Shown here in pieces: positions 24,920 through 29,002 of a stretch of DNA of 34,964 nt. A program made the translations under genes and the position numbers. The stretch is from Thermotoga sp. (lineage in GTDB: Bacteria; Thermotogota; Thermotogae; Thermotogales; Thermotogaceae), in the NCBI RefSeq assembly GCF_021162145.1, contig NZ_JAGGZH010000117.1:1-34964 (forward strand), given 5' to 3'. The stretch's first letter is position 1, and every line of letters starts with the position of its first letter. The notes under the pieces are model-generated. The model saw nothing but the letters and a program-made list of their open reading frames with translations, was not told the DNA's origin and searched no databases.

Positions 24920-25302
24920 AGAAAGACATGTTTTATGTGATCGTTCTGACGATATTTGCATTTCTTTTCATCGTCACGTACTTCTCCTACAGGGCGCTGA
25001 GCGAAAGAGTTGAGCGTACAGAGAAGATGTTGAAGGCCTACGAACTTTACATTTTCTCCGATTACGAAAAGTTCGCTGATTACGTTAAAAAAGAAGGGCT
25101 GGAAATAGAGGGAATGGATCTTCTGAAGGAGAGAAAGGCACGCTCCCTCCTTGCAGAGGCAAAGGATCTGTACAGGCTTGCCGACTACGGAGAAGCCCTG
25201 GTGTTGTTTGAAAAGGCTTCAAATTTGACAGACAGCGAAGAGGTCAAGAAGATAGCGAATTTCTACATAGAAGAGTGCAAGAAAAGGCTGGCGGGTGATT
25301 GA
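24916..25302 (+). CDS. Membrane-anchored TPR-like protein, function unknown
   Basis: 128 aa. One N-terminal membrane helix (MFYVIVLTIFAFLFIVTYFS, about residues 5-24) is followed by a helical soluble part. The C-terminal half has a TPR-like pair of helices (ARSLLAEAKDLYRLADYGEALVLFEKA, about 70-96). There is no lipobox. Orientation is probably N-in with the helical domain outside the membrane. GTG start overlaps the lon stop by 4 bp (GTGA), and it is followed after 1 bp by mre11. No named family recognised. Confidence 0.8.
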   Translation: MKKDMFYVIVLTIFAFLFIVTYFSYRALSERVERTEKMLKAYELYIFSDYEKFADYVKKEGLEIEGMDLLKERKARSLLAEAKDLYRLADYGEALVLFEKASNLTDSEEVKKIANFYIEECKKRLAGD

Positions 25303-25303
25303 A

Positions 25304-26446
25304 TTGAAGGAGTTGAAGCTGCTTCACACCTCAGACTGGCATTTTGGAATCACTTCCTGGAACAGTTCAAAGCCTGTGGATCGCAGGGTTGAGATAAAAA
25401 AGGCACTGGATAGGGTGATCGAAGAGGCAGAGAGAGAGGACGTAGACCTTTTCTTGGTAACAGGGGATTTGCTTCACAACAGATCGAATCCCGGTGTTCT
25501 TGCCGTGAACGAAGCCATGGAGTACTTAAGAAAGATGCTGAAGATCGCACCAGTTGTGGTGCTACTGGGTAACCACGATTGGCGTGGCTTGAAAGCGTTC
25601 GGGGATCTGCTTCAAGTTCTATCGAGTGACCTTGTCTTTTTGAGGCATTACGAGCCTGTGGATGTTGTCGCAAAACGGGGGCAGAAGGTAAGAATCCTCC
25701 CCTTTCCATATCCGGAGGAATCGGAAGGACTCGAAGCAAAAATATCAAAAGGAAAAGATTTCTCCCTGTATCTTGAGTCGAAACTGTCAAAACTCCGGGA
25801 GGCAGGTAAAGAAGACTTTGCGGTGTTCATGGGTCACTTCACAGTGGAAGGTCTAGAGCCTTACGTGAGTGTTGAGCAAGGAAGGGAGATTGTGATAAAC
25901 CGAAATCTTATTCCATCCTTCGTTGACTACGTGGCGCTCGGGCACCTACACGGTTTTCGAGTGGTACAGGAACAACCATTGATGGTTTACTCTGGATCCC
26001 CTATAAGACTGGATTTTGGTGAAGAAGGAGATGAAAAAGGTGCAGTGCTTGTGGTTGTGAAAAGGGGAAGCGAACCCGATTACAGAAGAATCGATACCGA
26101 TCCACTTCCACTGAAGACCCTGTTTTACAAAACGCTGGACACCTCTGCAAGGAGAGAAATAAAAGAATTCTGTCGCACCTTTCAAGGTTATGTGAGAGTC
26201 ACCTACGAAGAAGATCCTTTCAACATAGCTCATGAGATTCTCGGTGAGATCGACAATGTAGTGAAGGTTGAAAAAAGGATCGAAAAAGTGTTTCGAAGCA
26301 GCGTGAACGATGTGAGAGAAGAAATATCGAAACTGGATTTCTTCGAGCTCTTCAAAGAGTACGTGAAGATCCGTGTGGAGAATCACGAGAACATCATAAA
26401 ACTTTTTGAGGAGTTGCTCGAAGAGGTGAGAAAGAATGAAACCTGA
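25304..26446 (+). CDS. Mre11/SbcD DNA double-strand-break repair nuclease
   Basis: Mn2+-dependent 3'-5' exonuclease and endonuclease that acts with Rad50 on DNA ends and hairpins; 380 aa. All phosphodiesterase motifs are present: HTSDWHFG, VTGDLLH, LLGNHDW, MGHFTVEG and ALGHLHGF. A cap domain and a Rad50-binding helix-loop-helix (FFELFKEYVKIRVENHENI) follow. Start: TTG at 25304 (LKELKLLHTSDWH) has GGGTGA 5 nt upstream and corresponds to the T. maritima protein start as remembered; GTG at 25295 in the same frame is an alternative. Mre11 itself is intact although its partner is frameshifted. Confidence 0.95.
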   Translation: MKELKLLHTSDWHFGITSWNSSKPVDRRVEIKKALDRVIEEAEREDVDLFLVTGDLLHNRSNPGVLAVNEAMEYLRKMLKIAPVVVLLGNHDWRGLKAFGDLLQVLSSDLVFLRHYEPVDVVAKRGQKVRILPFPYPEESEGLEAKISKGKDFSLYLESKLSKLREAGKEDFAVFMGHFTVEGLEPYVSVEQGREIVINRNLIPSFVDYVALGHLHGFRVVQEQPLMVYSGSPIRLDFGEEGDEKGAVLVVVKRGSEPDYRRIDTDPLPLKTLFYKTLDTSARREIKEFCRTFQGYVRVTYEEDPFNIAHEILGEIDNVVKVEKRIEKVFRSSVNDVREEISKLDFFELFKEYVKIRVENHENIIKLFEELLEEVRKNET

Positions 26447-29002
26447 AAGACTCGTAGCTAAAAATTTCCTCGGGTTGAAGAGTGTGGATATAACTTTCGA
26501 AAGAGGCATCACGATTATAGAAGGTCCAAACGGTGCTGGAAAGTCATCGATATTCGAAGCCATCTCTTTTGCACTGTTCGGAGAGGGTATAAGATACGGA
26601 AGAAGCGTTTATGACTATGTGAACACGGGATCTTCAGAAAGAAAGGCCCAGCTGGTCTTCCGTTTTGAGCGAGGAGGCAGAAGATACGAAGTCCTGAGGG
26701 AAATAGACTCGAGTGGAAGAAAGAGACATTCTGCTGTCCTTGTTGAAGTGTTGGAAGAAGGGAAGAAAGCGAGGCAAGCAGTGAAAGTGGATGATGTGAG
26801 AAAGAAAATCGAGGAGATTCTGGGAGTGGACTCCAAACCTTCACGAAGACGATCTTCCTCCCACAGGGAAAGATCGATGAGCTCTTGAAGTCAACCCCCG
26901 GTGAGGTATCCAAGATCATATCAGACGTCTTTTTGGACGAGGATATTTTGAAGAAGCTGGAGGACACACTCAGCAAGAAGGTGAGCGAGTTGAGTCAGGA
27001 GATATCGGGTCATGAAAAAGTCCTTTCAGAGATCCTCGGCTACCTCGATGAGTACAGGCTGGAGGATTTGAACAAAAAGCTTGCAGCCTTGTTGAACGAA
27101 AAAGAAAGGCTTCTGGACGAGGAGAGAAAGCTCCGAGAAGAAGAAAAGAGGCTGTCTTACCTTGTTGAACGATATCGGGAGCTGGAAGAAAAGAGAAGAA
27201 GACTGGAAAAGCTGCTCCAAGAGAAGGAAAAGCTGGAGGAAGAGGTGAAGCAGGAAAGGAAAATAAAGAAGGCAAGGGAACTCAAACCCATTTTTGAAGA
27301 GCTACGTATTAGGGAAAGAGAGCAAGCACGCCTTTCCGATGAGATGAGCAGATACAGAGCACGTTTCAACAAACTTCAGGTGGAAAAGGAGAAGGCAATA
27401 GAAAGACTTTCGTTGTATGAAAAAAGTTTTTCACAGAAGAGAGAGCAAGCAGAGGATCTTCGCGATGAAATAGAAGAGTACGAGAGAATACTGGAAGGTT
27501 CACAACCGCTTGTGGAGAGAAGGATCAGAGTATTTGAGGCCATAGAGCGAATTGAACAGGAAGTGAAGGAACTCCGTGAGGAACTGGAAAAGAGAAGGAA
27601 GGAATTCTTTCACCTTGAGAGTATCATAGAAGAGAAGAAAGCAACCCTTCAAGAGACGGAGGAAAGGCTCCTTGAGCTGAAGAAAAACCAGCTGATGTGG
27701 TTAGCATATCAGATAGCATCGCATCTGAAAGATGGAGATACGTGCCCGGTATGTGGTGGAAAGTTTCACGGAGAGGCAAAAGCAGTTGATTTTGATCGTG
27801 AATATTTCGAGAAACTGGAAAAGGAAAAGGCCATCCTGGAGAGCAAGCTGGGTGTTCTCGAAGAAAGAAGGAGAAATCTTTCAGCATCGATCGAGGAAGT
27901 GGAAAAGGCTCTGGCCCACAAAGAACAAATACTGAACGAGTTGGTAGAGGAGAAAGGAACGATAGAAAAAGAACTCGACCGAATCGGGTATAAAGAAGGA
28001 ATGGAAAGAATCATCAGAGAAAGAAGAAGAATCGTCGAGGAACTCGAGAAAGAATGTAGGGCTCTTTCAGAAAAAGTGGCCTCGGAGAAAGCAAGGATCG
28101 AGCAACTCGATGAGCAGATCAGAAACATCCTGAGCGAAATGGAAACAAAGAAAGAGAGCCTTGATGCTTCGAGAAGAGAGTTGGAACGCTTGAAAGAAGA
28201 TTTTATGAAGAGATTGAAGGACACGGGTTTGAACTCCGAAGAATTCGAGATTCTGGTGAGAGAAGAGCCAAGGAATGTTGAGAGCGCGCTGAAGGCTGTT
28301 GAAACGGAGATCTGCTTACTCGAAAGGGATGTTAAAAGCTTGGAAGAGAAGGGATTGAACCCGGAGATAGTGAAGGAGTACGAAAGGGTCCTGGGCCAGC
28401 AGGATGAGGTGAAAAGAAAACTTTCCGAGCTAAACAGGGAAGAGGGTAGGGTGCGGCACATAATAGAGGAAGTGAAGACGAAGGAGAAGAAGGGAAAAGA
28501 ACTGGAGGTCAAATTGCTGGAGCTGAAGAAGAGACTCGAGGAGTTTGGACTTTTGAAAAGGCTTTTGTTCCGTAAAGACGAGTTTTACTCGTACTTCACG
28601 GAGAAGGTGCTCGAAGCTGTTTTAAAGCGAACCAACTCCTATTTAGAGGTGTTAACGGACGGTCGGTTCAAAATGGATTTCGTTTCCAGCAAAGGATTCG
28701 TGATATATGACAGAGGGATCGAAAGGCTAGCAAGCGGGCTTTCCGGAGGAGAGAGTTCCCTGATAGCGATTTCTCTCGCCATGTCTTTAGCTGAAGTTGC
28801 TTCCGGCAGACTCGACGCATTTTTCATAGACGAGGGGTTTTCAAGCCTCGACGTCGAAAACAAGGCGAAGGTGGCCTCTGTTTTGAAAGAACTGAAAAAA
28901 CTGAACAAAGTGATCGTTCTGATCACGCACGACAGGGAATTCTCGAATGCTTTCGAGAGAAGGCTGAGAATAGAAGAAGGGGTTGTCGTATCGAATGAGT
29001 GA
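26436..29002 (+). pseudogene. rad50: Rad50/SbcC repair ATPase, split by a 1-nt frameshift
   Basis: SMC-like ATPase partner of Mre11. The first frame (from ATG 26436) encodes the N-terminal ATPase lobe with Walker A EGPNGAGKSS, but ends after 150 codons at 26886-26888. The rest continues in the -1 frame. Frame loss occurs at 26835-26837, where AAA stands for an expected AAAA. Adding one A restores KTFTKTIFLPQGKIDELL, the Rad50 Q-loop region. The restored protein is 855 aa with long coiled coils, a zinc hook CPVCGG (Cys codons 27743 and 27752), signature LSGGESS, Walker B AFFIDEGFSSLD and an ITHD switch. Everything else looks intact and under selection, so this is a very recent mutation, a sequencing error or, less likely, recoding. 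ATG has GAGGTGA upstream and overlaps mre11 by 11 bp. Confidence 0.9.

What the first reader, a model, noticed from the sequence alone, without database searches (positions are those of the whole stretch)
26815..26906. rad50 is broken by a single-base loss at its Q-loop while mre11 is intact
The N-terminal lobe and the rest of Rad50 lie in frames offset by -1. One added A in the AAA at 26835-26837 restores an uninterrupted 855-aa protein including the FLPQG Q-loop. There is no classic X-XXY-YYZ slippery heptamer at the switch, so programmed recoding is unlikely. Either the strain has lost Rad50 very recently, which matters because mre11-rad50 is expected to matter at high temperature, or the base is a homopolymer error.
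Basis: partly seen in the sequence, partly recalled or inferred. Interest (0 to 1): 0.7.

Follow-up and report, generated by a model that had tools for sequence, protein, structure and literature searches.

The report
Single-base frameshift in Thermotoga rad50
The rad50 DNA-repair gene in this draft heat-loving Thermotoga genome is one base short near its start and therefore splits into two reading frames; all relatives have it whole and there is no other sign of decay, so it is either a very fresh mutation or an assembly mistake, and ordinary either way.

Summary
mre11 (25295-26446) is intact. The rad50 that follows is open in one frame at 26436-26888 (150 aa, Walker A) and in the -1 frame from 26795 to 29002 (705 aa from its first usual start, TTG 26885: zinc hook, signature, Walker B). 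The joint is at 26835-26837, nine codons before the Q-loop Gln. All six genus relatives and 14 other genomes of the order carry one unbroken ~853-aa ORF; only this genome is split. There is no slippery site, and the break is not conserved, so recoding is rejected.

The 'homopolymer error' reading is weakened. Five relatives read AGA and one CGT at the affected codon, so the missing base most likely came from a mixed triplet, not from an A-run. The assembly shows no more frameshifts than a single-contig relative (15 joints/395 genes against 12/412). Purifying selection has continued: no extra stops, no second frameshift, no acceleration, so the lesion occupies at most about 3% of the lineage. 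Contigs stop at about 2.5 kb, which suggests a metagenome bin, so a strain variant is possible too.

Verdict: a real, extremely recent loss or population variant (about 0.5), or an assembly or base error (about 0.42). Reads are needed. Interest is low.

The parts
25295..26446 (+). mre11/sbcD, 383 aa, intact
   Evidence: Pfam Metallophos, Mre11 capping domain and bacterial Mre11 C-terminal domain; TIGR00619 above its cut-off; aligns end to end in six relatives
26436..26888 (+). 5' part of rad50: N-lobe with Walker A (GPNGAGKSS), 150 aa, the last 16 out of frame
   Evidence: PF13476; matches solved Rad50 chain 3qf7_A residues 1-132, E 4.9e-48; 89% to G002/G005 over residues 1-135
26795..26888 (+). 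stretch in which both reading frames are open; no slippery heptamer and no ATG/GTG/TTG in the -1 frame before 26885
26835..26837 (+). place of the one-base deficit; window TCC-AAA-CC, relatives TCC/CAC AGA ACC or CAT CGT ACT
   Evidence: alignment with six relatives
26840..26869 (+). Q-loop segment FTKTIFLPQG, present only in the -1 frame and in neither conventional product
26885..29002 (+). 3' part of rad50 in the -1 frame, 705 aa: coiled coils with CPVC zinc hook, LSGGE signature, Walker B FFIDEG, ITHDRE
   Evidence: translation; PF13558; 3qf7_A C-terminal part, E 1.5e-64; 71% to G002 Rad50 130-853

Best explanation
This is the ordinary Thermotoga mre11-rad50 operon in which rad50 has lost one base at codon 134-135. 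The ribosome would make a 150-aa N-lobe fragment ending in 16 wrong residues. At best it would make an unlinked C-terminal fragment starting at TTG 26885, and neither product carries the Q-loop, so no working Rad50 ATPase is expected while Mre11 is made. The deletion is a genuine and extremely recent change in the sequenced cell line, or a minority or strain variant picked by the assembler. Shown: the frameshift in the assembled sequence, intact copies in all relatives, no second copy, no further decay. Inferred: that the base is really absent in the DNA, and that function is lost.
For: Frame break confirmed. Unbroken ORF of 851-905 codons in all 6 genus relatives and 14 other genomes of the order; only G000 is split. 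No second Rad50 in the genome: the other full-length AAA_23 hits are the SMC (C44) and a 790-aa protein (C14) that does not match Rad50. The missing base is not in a run of four or more and the ancestral codon was most likely AGA. Apparent frameshift load equals that of the single-contig relative: 15 joints in 395 genes against 12 in 412. After inspection, three own-only cases (rad50; C14:13340, intact in all relatives; C5:5540) stand against at least two G002-only cases. So a low rate of frameshifts is normal in genomes of this genus. Selection held until now: C-part dN/dS about 0.11-0.13 against G002/G005; 43 v 50 amino-acid changes in the relative-rate test (p=0.53); no stops although 3 would be expected at 0.024 substitutions per site.
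Against: A gene conserved across the order and under purifying selection right up to the present, with exactly one lesion, is also what a base or assembly error looks like. Only one genome of this species is held, in 152 contigs, and no reads can be seen. No second strain was found in genome contigs or viral contigs.
Confidence: 0.5

Rival explanations
1. Assembly, consensus or base-calling error: the organism has an intact rad50 and one base was dropped in the draft.
For: Single draft of 152 contigs; strong conservation and no other lesion; no independent strain. A published precedent: a frameshift in the Deinococcus radiodurans ssb gene of the 1999 genome was reported as a misassembly, and sbcC differs there at 11 positions from later assemblies (PMC11276467).
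Against: Not at a homopolymer of four or more. No excess of frameshifts in 395 comparable genes. The contig is 35 kb, and 31 relative genes matched in it with rad50 the only relative gene split there.
Confidence: 0.42
2. Split but functional Rad50: the two pieces are both translated (TTG 26885 overlaps the TGA stop as TTGA, allowing termination-reinitiation) and reassemble.
For: Stop and start overlap by coincidence of frames. Archaeal Rad50 catalytic halves have been solved as separate chains A and B (1f2t, 1ii8).
Against: The Q-loop segment 26840-26884 is in neither product, and no ATG/GTG/TTG lies upstream in the -1 frame. There is no Shine-Dalgarno match of four or more bases before TTG 26885, whereas rad50's own start has GAGGTGA. 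No relative is split.
Confidence: 0.04
3. Programmed -1 ribosomal frameshifting or transcriptional slippage restores full-length Rad50.
For: A 94-base stretch has both frames open, and purifying selection persists in the -1 frame.
Against: No X-XXY-YYZ heptamer and no run of five or more A or T in the overlap. All 20 intact relatives use one frame.
Confidence: 0.02
4. Old pseudogene: rad50 was lost long ago in this lineage and is decaying.
For: The C-part is fairly diverged from G002 (71% identity).
Against: Equal divergence in the sister branch (35 v 38 and 43 v 50 unique sites); no stops, no second frameshift; at most about 3% of the branch by the stop-codon bound and 28% by the codon-position bound.
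Confidence: 0.02

Closest known systems
Thermotoga Rad50/SbcC (solved as 3qf7, 3qg5, 4w9m, 3tho; that these are T. maritima is from memory)
   Same: Same operon with mre11, same N-lobe, coiled coil, CXXC hook, signature and Walker B; strong matches to both halves
   Different: Here the reading frame breaks between the N-lobe and the Q-loop
Recent single-lesion pseudogenes and frameshift artefacts in draft genomes (e.g. the misassembly frameshift in D. radiodurans ssb, PMC11276467)
   Same: One indel in an otherwise conserved gene with no other decay
   Different: Whether this one is biological or technical is undecided; the site is not a homopolymer of four or more
Programmed -1 frameshift genes (dnaX type)
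   Same: Overlapping open frames offset by -1
   Different: No slippery heptamer and no conservation of the break in relatives

Membership tests
Rad50/SbcC ATPase | Walker A in the N-lobe | tested here: met
   GPNGAGKSS in 26436-26888; PF13476, 73 bits
Rad50/SbcC ATPase | Zinc hook CXXC in the coiled coil | tested here: met
   CPVC in the C-part translation
Rad50/SbcC ATPase | Signature motif, Walker B and D-loop in the C-lobe | tested here: met
   LSGGESS and FFIDEGFSSLD; PF13558
Rad50/SbcC ATPase | Q-loop joined in frame to the N-lobe, one continuous protein | tested here: not met
   FLPQG is in the -1 frame; the N ORF stops at 26888
Rad50/SbcC ATPase | Next to mre11/sbcD | tested here: met
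   mre11 at 25295-26446 overlaps the rad50 start
Programmed -1 frameshifting | Slippery heptamer in the overlap | tested here: not met
   No X-XXY-YYZ in frame in 26795-26888
Programmed -1 frameshifting | Break conserved in relatives | tested here: not met
   All 20 relatives are unbroken
Homopolymer sequencing error | Indel in a run of identical bases | tested here: not met
   AAA only, relatives AGA or CGT
Homopolymer sequencing error | Raised frameshift load in the assembly | tested here: not met
   15 joints in 395 genes against 12 in 412 in a single-contig relative
Homopolymer sequencing error | Reads disagree with the consensus | not testable with these tools
   No reads held
Established pseudogene | Further lesions or relaxed selection | tested here: not met
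   No stops or other frameshift, no acceleration

The most novel reading that the evidence does not exclude
A natural hyperthermophilic bacterial population has just lost Rad50 while keeping Mre11, showing that Rad50 is dispensable at high temperature in Thermotoga, unlike in hyperthermophilic archaea where rad50 could not be deleted (PMC4471258).
Probability: 0.3. Interest if true: 0.4.

Novelty: new member of a known kind. Interest (0 to 1): 0.15.

Why it matters
If the base is really missing, a hyperthermophilic bacterium lives, at least for now, without a working Rad50. That would bear on whether Mre11-Rad50 is as indispensable at high temperature in bacteria as it appears to be in Thermococcus and Sulfolobus (PMC4471258). 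If it is an error, it matters only for annotation: the gene should be flagged as frameshifted and not counted as two genes or as a loss.

Tried and rejected
A first genome-contig scan with the C-part found no relatives, and a junction pattern scan found nothing in genome contigs or viral contigs, so no second strain could be compared. In one search, pieces of three relatives were cut from the wrong strand, so that alignment is not used; replace it. In the frameshift screen several joints turned out not to be lesions. L031/L061 is two genes fused in G002 only. L103/L128 is a 5' extension broken or stopped in most genomes. L122/L131 looks like a 5' extension not open in most genomes (identity as secA from memory). 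L099 is a compensated pair of indels. L117 overlaps a tRNA-like stretch and was not followed. Programmed recoding, old pseudogene and homopolymer error were considered and rejected or lowered as described. Literature on Thermotoga rad50 frameshifts: nothing relevant found.

Full report
What is there. The window is one contig (C117) of a 1.69-Mb genome in 152 contigs, 99% complete. Its nearest held relatives are six genomes of one genus. From memory, the contig lengths of G001, G002 and G003 (1,860,725; 1,884,562; 1,823,511) are those of Thermotoga maritima, T. neapolitana and T. petrophila; this is a lead, not a test. In the window, mre11/sbcD (25295-26446, 383 aa) is followed by rad50. mre11 is intact: Pfam finds the phosphoesterase, the Mre11 capping domain and the bacterial Mre11 C-terminal domain, and it aligns end to end with six relatives.

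The break. rad50 starts at ATG 26436 with the sequence GAGGTGA in front of it. It runs 150 codons to TGA 26886-26888, the last 16 residues being unlike any Rad50. The rest of Rad50 lies in the -1 frame, open from 26795 to 29002. The two parts match consecutive residues of the G002 protein, 1-135 at 89% and 130-853 at 71%, and consecutive parts of the solved Rad50 chain 3qf7_A. The joint falls at AAA 26835-26837. The Q-loop FLPQG follows in the -1 frame, with its Gln at 26864-26866.

Relatives. All six genus relatives have one unbroken frame of 854-855 codons. In the wider order, 14 more genomes have one unbroken Rad50 frame of about 850-905 codons, and only the window's genome is split (one further hit, G007, covers only part of the query, in a 71%-complete genome). 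No second Rad50 exists in the window's genome.

Which kind of indel. At the affected codon five relatives read AGA and one CGT. By parsimony the ancestor read AGA, so the missing base came from a mixed triplet and the remaining A's merely look like a run. There is no X-XXY-YYZ heptamer in the 94 bases where both frames are open, and the break is in no relative, so recoding is not a serious option.

How old. I compared the two parts, each in its own frame, with the relatives. The C-part has dN/dS of about 0.11-0.13 against G002 and G005. Amino-acid changes unique to the window number 35 against 38 on the sister branch, and the relative-rate test with G006 as outgroup gives 43 v 50, p=0.53. With the more distant G001 as outgroup it gives 54 v 35, p=0.06, which is not significant but should be noted. 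There are no in-frame stops and no other frameshift. In that ORF three stops would be expected after 0.024 neutral substitutions per site, about 3% of the branch; codon-position counts alone give only an upper bound of 28%. The lesion is therefore extremely recent or not biological.

Is the assembly error-prone? I took 606 kb of this genome and 1.6 Mb of G002 (a single contig) and looked for genes split over two frames in each direction. 395 G002 genes tested on this genome gave 15 joints; 412 of this genome's ORFs tested on G002 gave 12. Inspection removed several from each side. Own-only breaks confirmed against the genus are rad50, a 314-aa protein gene at C14:13335-13350 with a two-base expansion in an AGAG stretch, and a 181-aa protein gene at C5:5537-5588. 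G002-only breaks confirmed are a 585-aa protein and a 370-aa protein. Not every remaining joint was checked. So this draft is no worse than a single-contig genome. Among 78 contigs whose lengths were seen, none is below 2,533 bases and 15 lie between 2.5 and 3.5 kb. A floor at 2.5 kb suggests a binned metagenome, in which the assembler may have chosen one of several strain variants; this is inference.

Consequences if real. The N-lobe fragment carries Walker A but neither Q-loop nor C-lobe. A C-fragment could start only at TTG 26885, which overlaps the TGA stop (TTGA) but has no Shine-Dalgarno match of four or more bases before it and no ATG/GTG/TTG upstream in frame. Isolated N and C halves of an archaeal Rad50 have been solved as separate chains (1f2t), so a split alone need not be fatal. 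But the Q-loop segment would be in neither piece, so loss of ATPase function is the expected result. In hyperthermophilic archaea rad50 could not be deleted, whereas in halophilic archaea it could (PMC4471258). For Thermotoga I found no test.

Verdict. Reads would settle it. The finding is of low general interest.

Noticed in passing
L095:13335-13350 (G000:C14), minus strand: Another own-only frameshift: a 314-aa protein gene intact in all six relatives is split by a two-base expansion in an AGAG stretch.
   Followed up: yes
L086:5537-5588 (G000:C5): A 181-aa protein gene, whole in the six relatives (one with a TGA read through), is split over two frames here, apparently with more than one indel.
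   Followed up: partly
G002:C1:887313-887317 and 1129813-1129853: Two genes (585 and 370 aa) intact in this genome and the other relatives are frame-split in G002.
   Followed up: yes
L031:6870-6880 (G000:C10) and G002:C1:325609-327396: Two neighbouring genes that are separate in all other genus members are fused into one 596-aa frame in G002.
   Followed up: yes
G000 contigs: None of 78 contigs seen is shorter than 2,533 bases and 15 lie between 2.5 and 3.5 kb, the mark of a length cut-off as used in metagenome binning.
   Followed up: partly
window:28983-29615: A 210-aa ORF directly after rad50 without any NCBIfam match (it looks HEAT-repeat-like by eye).
   Followed up: no
window:11232-12278 (minus strand): This 348-aa ORF matches two frames in G002 (840568-841604), perhaps a gene fusion or extension here.
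   Followed up: no
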